The position numbers were made by a program, and so were the translations under genes. From Hondaea fermentalgiana (lineage: Eukaryota > Sar > Bigyra > Thraustochytrida > Thraustochytriidae), in assembly GCA_014084085.1 (NCBI GenBank), contig NPFB01000110.1:54979-118978 (forward strand): 64,000 bases of DNA. The letters are read 5' to 3'. The notes under the pieces were generated by a model, which saw nothing but the letters and a program-made list of their open reading frames with translations, was not told the DNA's origin and made no database searches. This document shows positions 38,554 through 56,084 of this stretch, in pieces. The number at the start of each line of letters is the position of its first letter. The stretch's first letter is position 1.

Positions 38554-41500
38554 ATGGGCTTCTTCTCTTCTGTCGACAGCCAGGTCGTCAAGGCGATCAA
38601 GAGCATCAAGACGGGCGCAAAGTATATCGTGTACGTAGCGTCGCGAGGCAAAGGCGAGTCAGCGTGTCGTCGTCTCCTGCGTGACTTTCTAATCTCGCCA
38701 ATCTGAACGACGGAAGGACTGACGGACTAACTGGCTGACCATAGCCTGGTGAACGAGAATGTTGGCGACTCGGGAGCCAAGGCGCTCGCAGGTGCGCTCG
38801 AAGGCAACAACACGCTGCTGGATCTCGAGTAAGTCTTCCCAGCAGCACGAGCATCTACCGATGACCACCTCGACTCACGTGCGTCTAACCTCTCTGCTTC
38901 TCTAGTCTTGGGCGAGACAACGTCGGCGCAGTGTAAGTTGACAAACCTTATTCTCGTCCACCCGCGCTTGTAGATAGCTCACACATCAAACCCCAACAGA
39001 ATCTTTCTCGACAGCATCGGCGCCTCCGGCACCAAGGCTCTGGCCAAGGCGCTCGAGACCAATTACACCTTGAGATCGCTCAGGTACGTTCACAACATTC
39101 TCTTGCAACGCACGACCGCAAACAATTAAAGAAGGCAAGCCCAAAAACTTACCATTTTCGCTTCGTCCTGTAGTCTTCACGGCAACATGATTGGCGCATC
39201 AGGTGCAAAGGCCATGGCGAACGCCTTAAAAACCAGCACATCTCTCCAAACGCTCGAGTAAGTGGCTCTTTTACATTCGCTTTTTATTCTTGCAACACAT
39301 ACTCACTCACATATACAACGCGAACTCTACGTAGTCTCGGGGCAACTGGACTCGGCGACGCTGATATCAAGCTCATTGCTGGCTCATTGCAGCAAAATGG
39401 AAGCCTTCACACACTCCTGTAAGTACATTTGCATCACTCCGCATCATCACATCGTGACTGACGTACCAACTTCACAATGCACATATGCAGCATCCAATCA
39501 AATGCAATCACGAACAAGGGCGCGACCTCGCTCGCGCAATCGATGGAAATGAACCTGGCGCTTCAAAAGATCAAGTAAGTCATGCTACAATCGCACCACA
39601 AAGAAAAATTAAAAAAGGGGGGCAACACCAAGTCTGACAATCGCACAGTCTCAGCGACAACCCGATCACGGACAATGCTCTCGTTGACCAAATCATGGCT
39701 GCCGCAAAGCGCAACAAGGAAAACCCAAGCATGAAGATCGACGCGAGGTGGCTCGAGGCGGTCAATGCCAGCATTCTTCAAGGCGATGAGCATGCCTGGG
39801 GGCGCGCCAAACTCATGATCGTGGGCCAAGGCGCCGCAGGAAAGACCTCGACCGTGCGTTCGCTTCTGGGTCTCGAACCTGTCGCAACGCACGAATCCAC
39901 TGAAGTCGCTGACGTGCATCGCACGCGTGCAATCGACTGGCAAGAAATTGCCGGCTATGATGGCGAGTTCGACATGCAAGTCCGCAAGGCCGCAAGACGC
40001 CGTCTCCGGCCCGACAAACCCCGCGTCAAAAGTCTGCCCCGCCGCGCATTGGACGCCTTGCGCCGCCGCACTTCGCGCGCGTCAACGGCGACCTCGGTAC
40101 TCACCTTGTCAGATTCCGAAGACGCCCCCGATGTCACGCCTCTCGTCCCACAAGACGAATTGGCACAGCGATTCGCGCTAACCGAGGCCGACCAGTTCGT
40201 TCTCCGCCAAGCCGCGGGCAGCGATGCCGACGCGCTCCAGTTTGATCTGAGCTTTACCATCTGGGACTATGGTGGCCAGGAAGTCTTTTATGCGCTGCAT
40301 CACATCTTCCTCACCGACAAGGGGATCTACCTCGTTGTCTTTGACATGCGCGAGCTTGCGGCTCTTTCCTCGCGCCCTAAGGCTCTGGCCAACCTTCGAT
40401 TTTGGCTCAACAGCATCAAACTCCATGCCCCAGAAGCCCCCATCCTCATCGTTGGCACCCATTTTGACAAGGTTCACGCTGGCGTTTTCCAAGCCGAAGG
40501 CTTCATCCAGGAAGCCTTGCCGCTCGCGGAATCGTATCCGCAGGTCGTACGCTCGGGTCCAGGTCGTTATATACACGCCATTGACAATATGTCTGCTTCG
40601 CCTGATCGCGCCGAGGCGCTTCGCACGGCCATTGCAGGCATCGCCGTCACGCAAGATTACGTCTTGCAGCAAGTTCCCCTCGCATGGCTCAAGGTTCACG
40701 AGGATCTACTGCACATGAACGAGCCCTACATCTTCTACGATCAGGTGGTCGAAATCGCTACCGCCTATGGCCGCTCAAGACGCGATGCGGACGCCATGCT
40801 TGCGTACTTTAACGGACTTGGCGTCGTCGTTCATCTCACAAGCTCGGAGACGTTGTCCCGGGTCGTGGTCGTCGATCCGCAGTGGCTTCTCGACAAGCTC
40901 TCACGTGTCATTGCTGACGACGTGCACGCGTCCCGCATTTCCGCATCCGTGGAACTTCAAGAAGCCGGGATCGTCGATGCCTTTCAACGGCTGCGACAAG
41001 AGGCCGTTGCGACACGTTCGTTGCTCGAATTTCTTTGGCACGGTGAGGAGGTCGACTACCTTGTGGCGTTCATGGATGCCAATCTGCTTTTGTGCAATTG
41101 GAACTTTGCTCCGGACGCTGAAGAGGACGAGTATCTCGTCTCGGGCCTCCTTTCCACGTCTATTCCTGATGTGGAAGTGGACGACTTCGAGCCCGGCCTC
41201 TCGTGCATCTTGGACTTTTCCGTCAGCTCTTTGCCCAATGGTGTCTTTCACCGTCTCGTCGCGCAATGTATTGCGTACGGGAGCCGTCCCGAAGTCCTGG
41301 GGGATGCAGAGCCGGTCGCCCCGAAGCTGGATCGAACCAAGGCGCTGCTCGCCTTTGGCCCAAACGAGTTTCTTATCCGCGCCGATGGCGACGTGCTCGA
41401 GGTCTCAATTTCTCAAAACGCAGAGCGTCCAGCCATGGTCGCTTGTGTCCTCCAAGACATGGTGAGCGAGCAAGAGGAAACTGTGTTTCCCAACCTTCCG

Positions 41501-42121
41501 TGTACCCTGCTTCTCGTTAGTCCCGTGACTGGGGCTGTCGTTTCGTATGCAGACGTCGCCAGCGCTTTCATGAGCGGAGAAGACATGGACGTTGTGGGCC
41601 GCAACGGAGAGGAGGACTCCTCTGCTAGCTTTGCGCCGTTTTTCGCCGAGGATCACGCTGATATCCCCGACTATTCTATTCCAGACTTGTGCGATGGCGA
41701 AACAACCCATGTCTTCCTCAGCTACGAGCCGACCCTGGGAGGAGAGCTTGCCGAAAACCTCAAGCTCAAGCTCGAGGACCGTGGTCTGACCGTTCTGCCA
41801 GCCGAGGGCGACGACGCAGATGCTCAGCTCGAAGCTATTTCGCATGCCCGCGCCTACATTCTCGTGCTTACCAAGGGCGTTTTTGCCCTCGGTGCAGTAA
41901 AGCAGCAGCTAAAGTGCGCGCTCGACGCCAACACACGAATTGTTGTCGTGCGCGAGGCTGATGCTGGCCGCGCGTCGTACGCGCCAACGTGCGATTATAT
42001 CGACACCGCACCAAGCTTCTTTCGAGATCAGTTCGCACCTTCAGAGTCTCTCGCGATGCAGCGAAAGCAGCATCGCGAGGAGGCCTTTTACGGCGAGCTC
42101 ATTCGCCGGAGTATTGGGTAG
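38554..42121 (+). CDS. LRR-ROC-COR protein with C-terminal TIR-like domain (ROCO family), eight exons
   Basis: Exons inferred by splice sites and frame: 38554-38630, 38745-38828, 38906-38932, 39000-39083, 39174-39257, 39335-39418, 39491-39574 and 39649-42121. Together they code 998 aa. All introns are GT-AG, 67-114 nt or so, and phase 2; intron 1 has a CTAAC branch-like site. The N-terminus MGFFSS fits myristoylation. Exons 2 and 4-7 are each 84 bp and encode one ribonuclease-inhibitor-type LRR (GASGAKAMANALKTSTSLQTL). The ROC GTPase domain has P-loop GQGAAGKTS (234-242), DYGGQE (381-386) and THFD (~445). A COR-like region follows. The C-terminus from ~860 (HVFLSYEPTLGG, ending in EADAGR) is TIR-like. 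No kinase domain is present. ROCO proteins are GTP-regulated dimers in signalling; LRRs sense ligands. Partner and ligand are unknown. Confidence 0.88.
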
Positions 42122-49449: not shown

Positions 49450-49549
49450 NNNNNNNNNNNNNNNNNNNNNNNNNNNNNNNNNNNNNNNNNNNNNNNNNNN
49501 NNNNNNNNNNNNNNNNNNNNNNNNNNNNNNNNNNNNNNNNNNNNNNNNN
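49450..49549. other. Assembly gap (100 N)
   Basis: Exactly 100 N in GC-rich sequence ahead of the LRR-NEL gene; the true length is unknown. Confidence 0.99.
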
Positions 49550-49868
49550 GGGAGACCGAGCTTGCGCTCGCGGGCGAGCTCGGGGCGAGCCGGCGAAGGG
49601 GCTGGAAGGAGATTTGCGTCGAGCGAGCTTGAGTGAGTGAGGGAGCGATTGTTGATCGAACGACCCGCCGGCACGTGCACGCGACGCGACGCGAGGCGGC
49701 GCGGGGAGGGACGCGGAAGGGGGGGAGAGGAGGACCCGTGCGCGGGGCCGGGCGGGGACTGGGGAGAGGAGCTGCGCGCGACGCAACTCTTGCTGTTGCG
49801 CGGAGAGACGAGCTCGCGCGGGGAAGAAATTCGCTCCTGAGAGAAGGAAGGAGAAGTTGCAGGAAAAG

Positions 49869-52800
49869 ATGGTCGTTCGCAAGCTTATGTGCGCAGCGAA
49901 CCTGCTGCATCGTCGAGGCTCCCATGAGGAAGAGGGCTTCGATGGCAGTAGTCTTGGAAATCAGAGACTTCAAGTTGCCGTTCGCGAGGCTCGGACCTCG
50001 AGGACAAGATCCGCATCATCACGCAGATCGTCGGCTTCACGTCGGTCGCGAGCTTCGTCCTCACGTCGATCCTCCAGACTTCGGGGTGCAGACAGCACGC
50101 AGCATGTAGACGCTCTCGACCAGAATGACGTAGACGCTCTCGACCAAAATGATATGGATGATCGCAATGACGCGATCAACAACGAAGATGCCACTCAGGA
50201 GGCTAATCTTGCAGAAGAAGAAGAAGAAGAAGAAGAAGAAGAAGAAGATTTCCTGGAAGGTCTGGTGGAGGACCAAGACCAAAACGAAGAAGAAGAAGAA
50301 GAAGAAGAAGAAGAAGAAGAAGAAGACAATGATGTCGCGGAGGAGCTGGCAAACTTGGTCGACAGAAATGCGGCAAACGTCTCCGGAGAAACGATCGGAG
50401 ACTTGGAGGCGCAGATCCGAGCCCTTGCGGAAATCCAGAGCGCGCAGGCCGGAGAAGTGAGTAGTCTCGAGGAACAATTTGGCCTTCTCGAAGGGGGTCT
50501 AGACCCTGAGGAGATGGACCACCTTCTCGCCCTGAGTCTGGAGTACGAGATGGAACAGGCAATGAACCAAGAAAGACTTGCGCTCGACAACGAGCAAGAG
50601 TCCGAAAATCTCGACCTTGGCCTGCGCATGTCCAACGAGCTGCAAGTATACCTTGAAAATTGGGCAAGCAGCGTAGCGACGGGCGACCTTTACACGATGG
50701 AGCGGATCTTTCACGAATTTGGTCAGCAAAATGCGCGCCTGGTGGAGACGGAAGACGGCACGCAGTCAATCGCCGTTGAGGGCAATCTATCCTTCCAAGA
50801 TCTCACCATTCCTGCGCTTCCACCGCGGGTCATCATCAGCGGAAACCTCTCCTTTCGCTCCTGCTCGCTTCCCGACGACGACACAGCGCACTGGACATGC
50901 AGCCGTCTTACACTTGTAAATTGTCATGGGGATACGCGCACTCTCATGGAGAACATTGAGTCTGCGCACAAATCCGCGAGCGGCGTGCTCGGCCTTCAGG
51001 GCCTTGCGCTGGACGCTATGTCCTCGAGCGAGAAGCCTCTCTCGCTTGAACTTGACAATTGCCAAGATCTAACGCACTTGGAAATTGCAGGCGACGAAGC
51101 CGTCGTCATGAACAAACTTAAAGTTAAGAGCTGCCCCGCTTTGGTGGCCGGGCCGGCAAAGCTCAAGGTACTTCAAACCATGGAACTCTCGAATCTGCCA
51201 CGCTTAGAGTCCTTTGGGCGCTCTAACCTGCATCTTGGCGAGCTGACGCGCATCCATCGCTGTCCGTCTCTCAACACTCTCTGTGACGATGATCTTCTCA
51301 TCGCCGGCGTGCTCAGAATCGAAGATGGGAAAATTGAGCGTATCTGCGAGGGCGCTCTCCGCTATGTGCCGGCGATCGAGAACGATGCGGCGAGTCGAGG
51401 CGAGACCTCTCCGAGCGTGACCATCGAGTGCATTGAGACGGACACACCACTTGCGGCCCGCATCGATAGTCCTGAAATGGACGTGCATTTCGCTGGCAAC
51501 AAACTCCCAGCCAAACTCTGCGAAGGTTCCATCATCGTGCGTTCCTTCTCTGTGAGCGGGCCCTGGTCTTTTCACCAGCGACTCATGGAGCAATATGGCA
51601 CCGAAGCCGAGCAATCCGGGACAGGCCGAGGTTCGCGCAGATCGCACCGCGGCCCCAGCAGAGATGCTGGGCCTCTTGGCATCGTCGTAGACGAACTTGA
51701 ATCGGAGGAGCGTTTCCACGACGAGGATTCGGGGCGATCGTCGCGAGCTTCGCAACAAGCAGCAGCGCCAACACCGTCTCCGGAACCACTGGGGCTGCGC
51801 AACTGGCTCGACGATGTACAAGCAACCATGTCGATTCACGTGAAGCGCCTTCCCGTGAAGGATTTCCGCGGCAAACTTTCCTCGCCCTTGCTTCATTTGG
51901 AGAGCCTTCCGATGGAGGACTTTCCCGATTGGAAGTGCGAGGCGGAAAAGGGTTCACTCCAGTTGGTGAGCTGCCCGTTGCTGGAGGTGGTTTGGCGGGA
52001 TGACGCACCGTCGGTTCCAATTTCCATTAATGTAGAAGACTGCGCAGCCCTGGAGAGACTTTCGGACGAAGAAGTGCAACTGGGAAGCTTTCGCATCTCG
52101 CGAGCTCCACAGATGCAGCGGCTGGCGCGGTCCATCGTGTTTACCGGACAGGAGTCAATCTCCATTGTTGATTTGCCGTCGCTGACAAGGCTTTCCGACG
52201 ATCTGGCTTTCTTCAAAGATGATGTTACACCGCAACTGTTCTTGCGCAGTGTCGGTATCAAAAGCCTTTCGGATATCGAAGGCAGCGGGTTCACTCAGCT
52301 TCGTGTGGAATCCTGCGACGAGCTCGAGGATGCGAGTCTTCGGGGCTTGTGGCAGTCTGTGGAAATCGTATCTTGCGACAAGGTAGCACGCGTCGAGGTT
52401 GGCCTGACAACTCGCGGGGGTTCTGGCGAGCTCACACTGAAAAAGCTTCCTCTCTTGCGAGACATTAAGCTTCGCACGGGATGTCTCAGGCTCAACATAT
52501 CTGACTGTCCCGAGTTCGTTGGTGAGACGATCACAGGTGACCATGATAGCGATGCCGAAGACGACAGTGGGAGTTATAGTGGTTCGTCAATGAGAAAGCC
52601 TCTGGACATTGGTCTGCTGTCAGGTTTACGCTTTCTATCGTTGGCCGGAAGTTCAGGGCTCCGCACGATTCCCGGTCCCTTGCCGCATACTTTACGGAAC
52701 CTCGACCTCTCGAACTGCCCCAACCTGGTTCACATCCCAGACGATGTGTTCAACGCCGCTCCCGGACGTGTCATACTCCGATTAGATCGCTGCGCATCGT

Positions 52801-55800
52801 TGCAAGGCATTCCTCCAATTCACGTTGCGTCGCTGAGCGCCGAGGGCTGCGTGGGCCTGCGCGAGGTTGGCGCTGGGTTCCGGGCGGGTTTGGTGTCTCG
52901 CGTCCGTGAAGATGGCTACATTGTGCGACTTTCTAGCGCACTGGGCGATGTCAACTTTCGCGGATGCGTAGCTTTGGAAAAGTTCGAGATGAAGTTTGTC
53001 TTGGGTGATCTCGACCTTTCTGGAACTGCCGTACGGGAACTACAGGCGATGCGCGTCTTGGGAAACCTGAGTTGCACGCACATGGGCAACTTGGAGATTG
53101 TCCACGCGGGGTCTCTGGTTGGTCAACAACAGCCAGGAATTCGGCGTTTGCCAATCAATGCGGAGGTGCGCTTTCGGTATTGCCCTCGTCTGAAGTCGAT
53201 CTCCATGGAGCGTGTCTTTGGCATGCTTGACATTTCGCACTGCATGAGTCTTGAAGAGCTCGCGGGCCCGCGCATGGAGGTCGGCGTCGACTTGCCGCTG
53301 GTAACAACGTGGGACACCAAGCCACTGTTGGACTCCTCGTATGACATGCTCAAGCCCGGGATGCTGCGGCTGCGCAACTGTCCATCGCTCCGCAAGCTAC
53401 CGAGCCATTTGATTTGCAGAGGCGGACTTGATGTGCGCTATTGCATGGGCTTGGAAGATATGTCAGGAGTCAAGCTGGAAGTTGGTTTTCCGGCGCTCGG
53501 GTCTCTTAGTCGCTCGCGGCAGAACGACACTACCCGCGCGGAGGCGTTTGCGTCGACAACGATTATCGGGTGTCCAATGCTCGAGGCCCTTCCATCGCGA
53601 ATGGTCATTTACGGAGACTGCATCTTTGCCTTTCTCGATGGTCTCAAGGGTCTTCCCTCGGAGGCACTTTATTATGGCCATCTCATTGTGTCGTCGTGCC
53701 GTGGGTTCACAGCTGTTCCGTCGCGTATGCGCGTTCGAGATACTTTTGCAATTCATAGCTGTGAAACCTTTGAGGGCGTTCCGGCAGGATGGCACCATGA
53801 GAATCCTCCGGCGCTCCTGACGATTGCCGCGGCGCGTCGTCTTTTACGCAGACGCAAGAGCGTGCAGCAGGCGGAGAGACGTTTAGACCGTACAATTCCG
53901 TCGCAATGGCGTGCCAATTCAGCTCAGCTTGAGATGTGTTTGCTCGAGCATGCGGCCGAGCAGCTGCGGCAGCGGCAGCGTGCGTGGACGGCAAATTCAA
54001 AGCCGGTGGACTACCAATGGCTTCGAAGGAACACCTTTTTGGGCGGGCCGCGACGCTCGATCACTCGCATGCGGGACCGACGGCTTGGGTCGTCTTCAGG
54101 AGCCCGGTCGGCGCGAGAGGGGTCGTTTTCGTCGTCGGACGATCTGGACGTGGCAGATTCCTCTTCGATGGTCTTGCTTCCTCGCGAACAGGAGGAGTTG
54201 GCACGGCTTGAAGAGGAGACTCTGCGCGAGGAGGCCAACGCAAGCAGGAGTTATCACACAGAAGGAGGCAGCGACAACGCGGGACAAGACGAAGACGGTG
54301 GCGGTGGCAACGACGATGAAGTATACATGCGCGAGTTCACATCAGAATCCAACCTCTTTCGTGAGGACGACGAATCCAGTCAAGATCTTGCAGCGCAAGA
54401 CCTCGCAGACGAGGACTACGATTCAGACGACGCTGAAGAGCTTCGCGAAGACGACGAAGTCGCCACTACGGATCCGTGGAGCGGCAATGTTTCCAAGTGG
54501 GAGCGAACGCGGCTATTGCATCGAACTGTTATTTCCTTGTGCCCTGGCGTGAAGCGTATTCCCGAAGGCGTCGAGGCACAGTCCCTAGCCTTGGTGAATC
54601 TCACTGAGCTTGTGGATGTGAGTGAAGATCTCCGGGTCGAGGTCAATCTTTGGGTCAATTCGGCGCCGAAGCTAGAGCAATTCCCGGCGACGGTCATTGC
54701 ACGCCTCGCACAGTTTGGTGCCGAGGCGAGGCTCCAGATGGCGAGGTTCAACGAGTACTGCAGCTCGAATCCGGAAGCGGTCGTGCGACGGCCGTCGAAC
54801 TGGCTTGCACGCGTGCGAAGACGCACGGGTGTCCCTCCAGAGCGACCGATCACGTCGCGTGCTACGATGATGCTGAACGCGACGGGCATTGATGTGGAGG
54901 AGCTTCGTTCGATGCGCGAAGTGTCTCTGCAGGATGCCGGCGATGCGCTGGAGTGGGTCACGTGGATGGCTGACGATCTCTTTCAAGGTGACCTCGGGAC
55001 TTCAGATGCACTGTTTGATCGCGAGGAGGAGGAAGAGGAGGATTTGGCGGAGGATGACTGGGATGGGGGCGATGCAGATGCGCTCAACGGCAATGGCAAC
55101 GGGAGCCTGGGCGGCGAGTTCGAGGACTTTCGCACGGCCGTGTTGTTTTGGAAGGCTGCTGCAACGGGTCGCCCACCGCGTCTGATGCGCATGCTCTTTG
55201 AGACGGAAGACGACTATGAGGTGCTTTCTTGTCTTGACCGCGTCGTGGACGCGGCGTATCGGGGCAGCGTGCTGACATTTCTGGACATGCTGCGCAGATC
55301 GCGTGAGTACCGCAATCCTACGACACGACGCGGGCTTGCCGAGCGTGTCGTGGAGGTCCTGCATAATGTTTCTCAGGACGAGGAGGCTCGCGATGAGCTT
55401 TCTGCCCGCATGGCGGATGCGATTGACGCTTGTGAGGACAAACCGATTTGGGCGTTGAACCAGATGGAGGTGGTGGGGCTGATTGCACATGCACGGGGAG
55501 ATCGCGAGGCGTTGCGAGCGCTGGGGAGGCGCCTGGTGAATCTTGACATTGTGCACGAGGCGGCACGGAAACGCATCGAGCAACGAGGCGGTTTTCTTGA
55601 TGTCGACGATGTTTGCGTGTATTTGCAGTACGAGATCCAGTTCCGACTTCCGCTGAACCTCCCTGTATCATCACATTTCATGGTGTATGGCAGCACGATT
55701 CCCGGCGAAGAGGTCATTCGCGTGTCGCGTGCAGCCTTGAATTTGTCTGACGAAGACTTTGAGGCATGGCTTTCTCGATGGCCCGAGTGGACGCGTCAGG

Positions 55801-56084
55801 ATCGTTTTGAGTATGCTCGTTCTTTACAGTGGGAAGACCTGCCACGGAACGGGAAGCGTGTGAGCCTTGGTCGCTCGACCCTGCTTGGTGATGATATTCC
55901 AGATCCTGTTCGGTTGAGTGGGGCGACCTACTCGATGGAGGAATTGCTCACGCATTGGGTGCGCACAGGCATGGACTTTAGCAACGTTCGGCACTCGGTG
56001 CAAGAGATGGCCAAAGGTTTGTCGCGATGTGACATCGTGTTTGAGGATGACGAAGATGTGGTCGTACCAGTGAGCAAAAGATAA
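49869..56084 (+). CDS. Giant leucine-rich-repeat protein with C-terminal NEL-type (IpaH-family) E3 ubiquitin ligase domain
   Basis: 2,071 aa in one exon from ATG 49869 (MVVRKLMCAANLL). Order: Arg/Ser-rich start; acidic region with two poly-Glu runs (~115-155); an extended array of degenerate LRRs of the form L-x-x-C-P-x-L-x-x-L-P (~290-1315), for example LRLRNCPSLRKLPSHL and LDLSNCPNLVHIPDDVF; a basic helix; a second acidic region (~1440-1530); one more LRR-like stretch (~1550-1600). A NEL domain follows at ~1750-2010: SVLTFLDMLRRS, ADAIDACEDKPIWALNQME with catalytic Cys1855 in a C-E-D motif, LGRRLVNLDIVHEAARKRI, DVDDVCVYLQYEIQ and FEAWLSRWPEW. NEL enzymes take ubiquitin from E2 onto the Cys and pass it to substrates bound by the LRRs. 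The family is known from secreted bacterial effectors. Codon use looks like the neighbours, so any transfer is old. Confidence 0.88.
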   Translation: MVVRKLMCAANLLHRRGSHEEEGFDGSSLGNQRLQVAVREARTSRTRSASSRRSSASRRSRASSSRRSSRLRGADSTQHVDALDQNDVDALDQNDMDDRNDAINNEDATQEANLAEEEEEEEEEEEDFLEGLVEDQDQNEEEEEEEEEEEEEDNDVAEELANLVDRNAANVSGETIGDLEAQIRALAEIQSAQAGEVSSLEEQFGLLEGGLDPEEMDHLLALSLEYEMEQAMNQERLALDNEQESENLDLGLRMSNELQVYLENWASSVATGDLYTMERIFHEFGQQNARLVETEDGTQSIAVEGNLSFQDLTIPALPPRVIISGNLSFRSCSLPDDDTAHWTCSRLTLVNCHGDTRTLMENIESAHKSASGVLGLQGLALDAMSSSEKPLSLELDNCQDLTHLEIAGDEAVVMNKLKVKSCPALVAGPAKLKVLQTMELSNLPRLESFGRSNLHLGELTRIHRCPSLNTLCDDDLLIAGVLRIEDGKIERICEGALRYVPAIENDAASRGETSPSVTIECIETDTPLAARIDSPEMDVHFAGNKLPAKLCEGSIIVRSFSVSGPWSFHQRLMEQYGTEAEQSGTGRGSRRSHRGPSRDAGPLGIVVDELESEERFHDEDSGRSSRASQQAAAPTPSPEPLGLRNWLDDVQATMSIHVKRLPVKDFRGKLSSPLLHLESLPMEDFPDWKCEAEKGSLQLVSCPLLEVVWRDDAPSVPISINVEDCAALERLSDEEVQLGSFRISRAPQMQRLARSIVFTGQESISIVDLPSLTRLSDDLAFFKDDVTPQLFLRSVGIKSLSDIEGSGFTQLRVESCDELEDASLRGLWQSVEIVSCDKVARVEVGLTTRGGSGELTLKKLPLLRDIKLRTGCLRLNISDCPEFVGETITGDHDSDAEDDSGSYSGSSMRKPLDIGLLSGLRFLSLAGSSGLRTIPGPLPHTLRNLDLSNCPNLVHIPDDVFNAAPGRVILRLDRCASLQGIPPIHVASLSAEGCVGLREVGAGFRAGLVSRVREDGYIVRLSSALGDVNFRGCVALEKFEMKFVLGDLDLSGTAVRELQAMRVLGNLSCTHMGNLEIVHAGSLVGQQQPGIRRLPINAEVRFRYCPRLKSISMERVFGMLDISHCMSLEELAGPRMEVGVDLPLVTTWDTKPLLDSSYDMLKPGMLRLRNCPSLRKLPSHLICRGGLDVRYCMGLEDMSGVKLEVGFPALGSLSRSRQNDTTRAEAFASTTIIGCPMLEALPSRMVIYGDCIFAFLDGLKGLPSEALYYGHLIVSSCRGFTAVPSRMRVRDTFAIHSCETFEGVPAGWHHENPPALLTIAAARRLLRRRKSVQQAERRLDRTIPSQWRANSAQLEMCLLEHAAEQLRQRQRAWTANSKPVDYQWLRRNTFLGGPRRSITRMRDRRLGSSSGARSAREGSFSSSDDLDVADSSSMVLLPREQEELARLEEETLREEANASRSYHTEGGSDNAGQDEDGGGGNDDEVYMREFTSESNLFREDDESSQDLAAQDLADEDYDSDDAEELREDDEVATTDPWSGNVSKWERTRLLHRTVISLCPGVKRIPEGVEAQSLALVNLTELVDVSEDLRVEVNLWVNSAPKLEQFPATVIARLAQFGAEARLQMARFNEYCSSNPEAVVRRPSNWLARVRRRTGVPPERPITSRATMMLNATGIDVEELRSMREVSLQDAGDALEWVTWMADDLFQGDLGTSDALFDREEEEEEDLAEDDWDGGDADALNGNGNGSLGGEFEDFRTAVLFWKAAATGRPPRLMRMLFETEDDYEVLSCLDRVVDAAYRGSVLTFLDMLRRSREYRNPTTRRGLAERVVEVLHNVSQDEEARDELSARMADAIDACEDKPIWALNQMEVVGLIAHARGDREALRALGRRLVNLDIVHEAARKRIEQRGGFLDVDDVCVYLQYEIQFRLPLNLPVSSHFMVYGSTIPGEEVIRVSRAALNLSDEDFEAWLSRWPEWTRQDRFEYARSLQWEDLPRNGKRVSLGRSTLLGDDIPDPVRLSGATYSMEELLTHWVRTGMDFSNVRHSVQEMAKGLSRCDIVFEDDEDVVVPVSKR
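50213..50326. repeat. Two GAA microsatellites encoding poly-glutamate
   Basis: GAA tracts at 50213-50248 and 50286-50326 code for runs of 11-13 Glu in the N-terminal acidic region of the LRR-NEL protein. Such tracts change length easily, so alleles may differ. Confidence 0.95.

What the first reader, a model, noticed from the sequence alone, without database searches (positions are those of the whole stretch)
49869..56084. NEL-type (IpaH-family) E3 ubiquitin ligase domain on a giant LRR protein in a eukaryotic genome
Seen: a single 6.2-kb frame with degenerate LRRs and a C-terminal region that carries the NEL landmarks in order, including the C-E-D catalytic motif at Cys1855, LGRRL, the VDDV-YL helix and the WLSRWPEW segment. 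Known: NEL ligases are described from bacterial type III effectors of pathogens and symbionts, where LRRs select the substrate. Inference: this is either an old bacterial acquisition or a eukaryotic branch of the fold, now under host codon use and 3-4 times the length of the bacterial proteins. It would be a host-encoded ligase of a class thought of as an anti-host tool.
Basis: partly seen in the sequence, partly recalled or inferred. Interest (0 to 1): 0.92.

Follow-up and report, generated by a model that had tools for sequence, protein, structure and literature searches.

The report
Protist's own NEL/U-box-like ubiquitin ligases
A marine protist carries at least thirteen genes of its own for a type of ubiquitin-attaching enzyme so far described as a tool of bacteria, and in the protist the part that grips the ubiquitin carrier seems to have been exchanged for a module that looks eukaryotic.

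Summary
Window 49869-56084 (+) is one open frame of 2071 aa. Its C-terminus matches Pfam NEL (88.6 bits, cut-off 24), with the catalytic C-x-D at Cys1855; its predicted structure matches solved NEL domains first. The genome is that of Hondaea fermentalgiana, a thraustochytrid (three sister NEL frames equal its NCBI proteins letter for letter). It holds 13 NEL places on 12 contigs, none with stops. Relatives include thraustochytrid transcripts. In a tree of 82 NEL cores, the 47 rows of this type form one side of a branch (100/99); C-x-D is invariant in all 82.

Beyond the finding: homology to bacterial NELs stops after W-x-E-W, where bacterial NELs continue into a helical E2-ubiquitin-binding 'thumb'. 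The protist proteins mostly carry a conserved ~57-residue module there that resembles a degenerate U-box by profile-profile comparison (0 of 300 shuffles in each of two controls) and, with modest scores, by structure. No single member passes Pfam's U-box model (0 of 33).

Most likely: a host-encoded transthiolation ligase family with a swapped E2-docking module. Activity and E2 binding are inferred.

The parts
49869..56084 (+). Whole frame, 2071 aa from the first ATG (an upstream TTG lies at 49857); true start not fixed
50616..54668 (+). Degenerate leucine-rich repeats with acidic and Ser/Arg-rich inserts (about residues 250-1600); presumed substrate-binding part
   Evidence: 24 LRR core motifs against mean 6.2, max 14 of 1000 shuffles; PF23952 below its cut-off
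55269..55796 (+). NEL catalytic core, Pfam match at residues 1801-1976
   Evidence: PF14496, 88.6 bits, cut-off 24; structure match
55431..55433 (+). Cys1855, predicted nucleophile of C-x-D
   Evidence: invariant in 82 of 82 aligned rows; in register with C-E-D of IpaH9.8
55437..55439 (+). Asp1857 of C-x-D
   Evidence: invariant in 82 of 82 aligned rows
55605..55607 (+). Asp1913, counterpart of IpaH9.8 Asp397
   Evidence: D in 46, E in 1 of 47 rows of this type
55872..56042 (+). C-terminal U-box-like module, residues 2002-2058, in the place of the bacterial E2-binding thumb
   Evidence: against:

Best explanation
This is one member of a host-encoded family of cysteine-based E3 ubiquitin ligases in thraustochytrids. 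Shown here: a NEL catalytic core homologous to the IpaH/SspH/NopM core, an invariant Cys-x-Asp, long variable N-terminal modules (here degenerate LRRs), and a C-terminal module, conserved in most members, that is not the bacterial thumb and resembles a U-box. Inferred: the N-terminal module binds a substrate of the protist's own cell. The C-terminal U-box-like module docks a charged E2 enzyme. Ubiquitin passes from the E2 to Cys1855 and then to a lysine of the substrate. The protein would thus combine RING/U-box-type E2 docking with a catalytic cysteine, as RBR ligases do (recalled), but on a NEL core. Inferred history: one acquisition from bacteria, replacement of the thumb, then duplication with exchange of N-terminal modules before the sampled relatives split.
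For: NEL core. Catalytic residues. Thirteen places without stops; E2s present (24 UBC matches, 23 over the cut-off). Constraint: in 10 of 10 pairs (nine sister pairs of the tree, one near pair) both NEL core and C-terminal stretch are more conserved than the N-terminus. Transcripts of relatives: three MMETSP entries and one EukProt entry from MMETSP0198, Thraustochytrium sp. LLF1b. C-terminal module. Thumb missing: homology to the 15 bacterial NEL representatives ends just after W-x-E-W, and bacterial C-termini match U-box at probability 0.06-0.42 and the protist C-terminus at 0.09-0.22, with one group at 8.28. SspH1 has its E2-UbBD there (residues 623-697; PMC12506513, passages). Single branch.
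Confidence: 0.7

Rival explanations
1. It is a NEL ligase of the ordinary bacterial mechanism: the C-terminal module is a strongly diverged thumb or an unrelated small domain, and the U-box resemblance is a chance likeness.
For: Single-sequence U-box searches fail; structural scores are modest; one bacterial C-terminal group shows a weak resemblance to the protist module; some members keep the module poorly.
Against: Profile-profile score 25.25 against maxima of 19.5 and 14.9 in 300 + 300 shuffles; of 11 windows along the NEL alignment only the two at the module score above 20, the other nine 7.1-16.8. Of the first 21 Foldseek rows 17 are entries of U-box proteins or their complexes and four are spliceosome entries. 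Bacterial thumbs are two long helices and a short one (PMC12506513), whereas the model has strands around a helix.
Confidence: 0.22
2. The family has lost ligase activity and now serves as a binding scaffold (pseudoligases).
For: No enzymatic evidence; the U-box-like module lacks typical E2-contact positions (recalled).
Against: Cys and Asp of C-x-D are kept in 47 of 47 rows of this type although the 12 other own NELs are only 36-54% identical to the window's; the Asp1913 counterpart is acidic in 47 of 47.
Confidence: 0.08
3. The direction is reversed: the fold arose in eukaryotes and bacteria took it as effectors.
For: The root is unknown; the protist-type branch is diverse and separate; described bacterial NELs act inside eukaryotic cells (PMC9320238).
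Against: Many eukaryotes were not searched.
Confidence: 0.15
4. Bacterial contamination or a chimeric contig.
For: A 100-N gap lies about 320 bases upstream of the frame.
Against: No N between the frame and the downstream NDK-like gene; 13 places on 12 contigs; exact matches to Hondaea records; transcripts of relatives in a Thraustochytrium; the protist motifs found no relative in GTDB genomes.
Confidence: 0.01

Closest known systems
Bacterial NEL effectors (IpaH, SspH1/2, SlrP, NopM; PF14496)
   Same: Homologous catalytic core, C-x-D nucleophile, Asp1913 counterpart, LRR-before-NEL layout
   Different: Encoded by a eukaryote in at least 13 copies; lacks the helical E2-UbBD thumb and mostly carries a U-box-like module there; lacks a loop of several residues after the catalytic motif; varied N-terminal modules (SPRY, SAM, Arm)
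   Same: NEL core at the C-terminus of a very long frame
   Different: On the other side of the branch in the tree; C-termini show no U-box match
U-box E3 ligases (UBE4B, Prp19, CHIP; PF04564)
   Same: The C-terminal module resembles the U-box in profile and predicted fold
   Different: Below Pfam detection; typical second E2 loop not kept (recalled positions); attached to a cysteine-based core
RBR ligases (Parkin, HOIP type; recalled)
   Same: Would work alike: an E2-docking RING-type module plus a catalytic cysteine
   Different: No RBR domain matched in the Pfam scan of the window protein; resemblance of mechanism only, inferred

Membership tests
NEL domain family (PF14496) | Profile match over the curated cut-off | tested here: met
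   88.6 bits against 24; 13 of 13 own places over the cut-off
NEL domain family (PF14496) | Catalytic Cys in C-x-D | tested here: met
   Cys1855; kept in 82 of 82 aligned rows
NEL domain family (PF14496) | NEL catalytic fold | tested here: met
NEL domain family (PF14496) | Ubiquitin ligase activity through a thioester | not testable with these tools
   Needs purified protein
Bacterial NEL effectors (IpaH/SspH type) | N-terminal LRR domain | tested here: met
   Degenerate LRRs by motif count; Pfam LRR models below cut-off
Bacterial NEL effectors (IpaH/SspH type) | C-terminal helical E2-Ub-binding thumb | tested here: not met
   No profile match between bacterial and protist C-termini (probability 0.22; 0.09-8.28); model is strands around a helix. 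So not filed as a member of this effector type
Bacterial NEL effectors (IpaH/SspH type) | Bacterial gene, secreted by a type III system | tested here: not met
   Thraustochytrid contig
U-box (PF04564), for residues 2002-2058 only | Pfam match over the cut-off | tested here: not met
   0 of 33 members match U-box at E up to 1; so not filed as a U-box protein
U-box (PF04564), for residues 2002-2058 only | Profile resemblance beyond chance | tested here: met
   hhalign probability 63.9, score 25.25; 0 of 300 and 0 of 300 shuffles reach the score
U-box (PF04564), for residues 2002-2058 only | U-box fold | tested here: inconclusive
U-box (PF04564), for residues 2002-2058 only | E2-contact residues | tested here: inconclusive
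   Alignment: loop 1 hydrophobic kept, loop 2 Pro not kept; contact positions are recalled, not from a call

The most novel reading that the evidence does not exclude
Thraustochytrids own a hybrid class of E3 ligase in which a NEL catalytic cysteine core, known from bacterial effectors, is served by a U-box-like E2-docking module in place of the bacterial thumb. The class radiated into at least 13 paralogues with different substrate-binding modules and acts in the protist's own physiology.
Probability: 0.55. Interest if true: 0.93.

Novelty: new variant of a known kind. Interest (0 to 1): 0.85.

Why it matters
[quoted passage not shown] Here a marine eukaryote carries a duplicated family of them with conserved catalytic residues. 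If the module swap is right, it is a natural experiment on how a cysteine-based ligase obtains its E2: the same catalytic core with two unrelated docking modules. It would make the role of the thumb directly testable by comparison, and it would add a cysteine-based E3 class to the host side of the ubiquitin system. The family may have gone unnoticed because public Hondaea records name members tubulin, ryanodine receptor, importin, LSm1 or disease-resistance protein.

Tried and rejected
Contamination was considered and rejected. Codon use as evidence: rejected as uninformative; the gene scores -1.199, seven window genes -1.09 to -1.24, three bacterial NEL genes (Serratia, Bradyrhizobium, Sinorhizobium) -1.20 to -1.28, and the gene's own antisense -1.162. 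A donor search with the protist NEL alignment in GTDB genomes gave 79 pattern matches and no relative; in IMG/VR 3 pattern matches and no relative. tblastn of one paralogue found 156 plasmid records, all under 60% identity, the 40 listed ones at most 30.3%, and one phage record. The search of 398 bacterial genomes with the C-terminal alignment found nothing, but without a positive control this shows nothing. Rooting the tree was not possible. dN/dS was not attempted, because no orthologous DNA was in hand.

Rows dropped before counts: the tree used 34 of the proteins P0002-P0043 plus the 13 own frames (P0001, P0009 and seven Hondaea records left out because they repeat own frames), none of P0044-P0054, 15 of 83 bacterial loci L022-L104 (80% identity filter; itself kept the best 80 of 231, all rhizobia) and 20 of the 32 loci L114-L145 (fragments, repeats, weak ones and three undetected left out). 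Alignment A5 holds 33 of the 47 C-terminal segments; left out were some near-repeats and also the members in which the module is poorly kept (L013, P0041, P0043) or the gene model looks wrong (P0014), so A5 leans towards members that keep it; two further proteins had no motif. In one search the two 'big_pseudo' lines are a stale file and are void; one search replaces them. L012 was read for 2831 aa of an open frame of 3546.

Papers: PMC9320238 (passages and section 14), PMC12506513 and PMC7145615 (passages), PMC7029713, PMC12221091 and PMC12258536 (passages around search terms); the rest only in search listings. PMC7145615 reports a NEL-like domain in algal NLR genes; I did not test it. That eukaryotic NEL families are not in print rests on these nine searches of open-licence papers alone.
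Full report

Where it lies. The window is part of a 36.0-Mb assembly of 238 contigs. Three NEL frames of this assembly are letter for letter the NCBI proteins of Hondaea fermentalgiana (P0004, P0016, P0024), a thraustochytrid. Neighbouring frames carry FYVE and Ysc84, SLC12, Roc-COR and helicase-associated domains. The 18S search did not complete.

A family. The genome has 13 NEL places on 12 contigs, all over the cut-off, none with stops. In the 12 others, Pfam at E up to 0.01 finds SPRY plus LRR (two: L010, L014), SAM (one: L012), an Arm repeat (one: L011), LRR_EndoS-like matches (five, including L012 and L014, one of the five over its cut-off), and nothing but NEL in five (L009, L013, L015, L017, L019). 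One public Hondaea NEL protein, P0027, is at most 40% identical to anything in the held assembly, whose 13 NEL places its search found again, so the species probably has at least 14. Public relatives include metagenome proteins without organism names, three MMETSP transcripts and a protein of Thraustochytrium sp. LLF1b. The nearest is P0002, 75% identical over the NEL query. Hondaea records of the same genes are named tubulin, ryanodine receptor, importin, LSm1 and disease resistance protein. No record identical to the window protein was listed, which covers lengths of about 1140-3620 aa.

Constraint. Cys and the Asp two residues on are kept in 47 of 47 rows of the protist type (13 own, 34 public) and 35 of 35 bacterial rows; the counterpart of Asp397 of IpaH9.8 is D in 46 and E in 1 of 47. 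In 10 of 10 pairs (nine sister pairs of the tree and one near pair) the NEL core (46-76% identity) and the C-terminal stretch (56-84%) are better conserved than the N-terminus (31-53%).

Relation to bacterial NELs. Of 398 Pseudomonadota genomes, 9 hold a NEL match, with open frames up to 2430 aa. In a tree of 82 NEL cores over 274 columns, the 47 rows of the protist type are one side of a branch with support 100/99 and length about 2.3; the program warns that long branches meet there, and the root is not known. In the 17 rows printed, those of the protist type lack a loop of several residues that the bacterial rows have, and the distance from the cysteine to the Asp1913 counterpart is 53-61 in 46 of 47 protist-type rows (76 in one) against 60-88 in the 35 bacterial rows. 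Patterns built on the protist motifs found no NEL in GTDB genomes.

How it most likely works. Shown: core, catalytic residues, module, family, conservation. From established knowledge: NEL cores take ubiquitin from an E2 on the cysteine and pass it to lysine (PMC9320238 section 14), and U-boxes dock E2s (recalled). Inferred: the U-box-like module docks E2-ubiquitin where the bacterial thumb would, the N-terminal module chooses a substrate in the protist's own cell, and Cys1855 carries the ubiquitin. E2 genes are present (24 UBC matches, 23 over the cut-off). It would work like an RBR ligase without being one.

Membership and novelty. It belongs to the NEL catalytic-domain family. It is not filed as a bacterial-type NEL effector, because the thumb is absent. 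It is not filed as a U-box protein, because the Pfam test fails. I rate it a new variant of a known kind. I found no paper on eukaryotic NEL families in nine searches of open-licence papers; one paper (PMC7145615, passages) mentions a NEL-like domain in algal NLR genes.

Noticed in passing
window 39695-42121 (+): Frame with Roc, COR-A and a weak TIR match (TIR below its cut-off): a possible Roc-COR-TIR protein.
   Followed up: no
G000:C172:621582-622136 (-) and 626339-626866 (+); L019 and L009: Two NEL domains lie 4.2 kb apart on opposite strands and fall in one starred clade of six rows in the tree: a probable local duplication.
   Followed up: partly
P0027: A Hondaea record named disease resistance protein RPP5 is a further NEL protein that the held assembly lacks (best match 40%); a stretch may be missing or withheld.
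   Followed up: partly
P0006, P0013, P0020, P0022, P0050: NCBI proteins on 5-11 kb contigs, one of them named Durusdinium trenchii, carry NEL domains of the protist type and names such as ipaH7.8, SspH1, importin or COP9 subunit. This may be thraustochytrid DNA in a coral-symbiont assembly.
   Followed up: no
P0007, P0008, P0014: Public Hondaea gene models appear to fuse NEL genes with neighbours or misname them (tubulin, ryanodine receptor, LSm1).
   Followed up: partly
window 49450-49549: A gap of 100 N lies about 320 bases upstream of the frame, so the 5' end and promoter cannot be judged.
   Followed up: partly
L012 / G000:C221 and P0003: SAM + LRR-like + NEL protein with an open frame of 3546 aa, and a sister protein of 3458 aa with SAM-type Pfam hits.
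   Followed up: partly
G000:C30:55169-55981 (-): An open frame of 716 aa matches the LRR part of a NEL paralogue without a NEL match: an LRR-only relative.
   Followed up: no
P0051: A 389-aa protein with PF14284 matched the family profile at E 3e-10 with 21% of the query covered; not explained.
   Followed up: no
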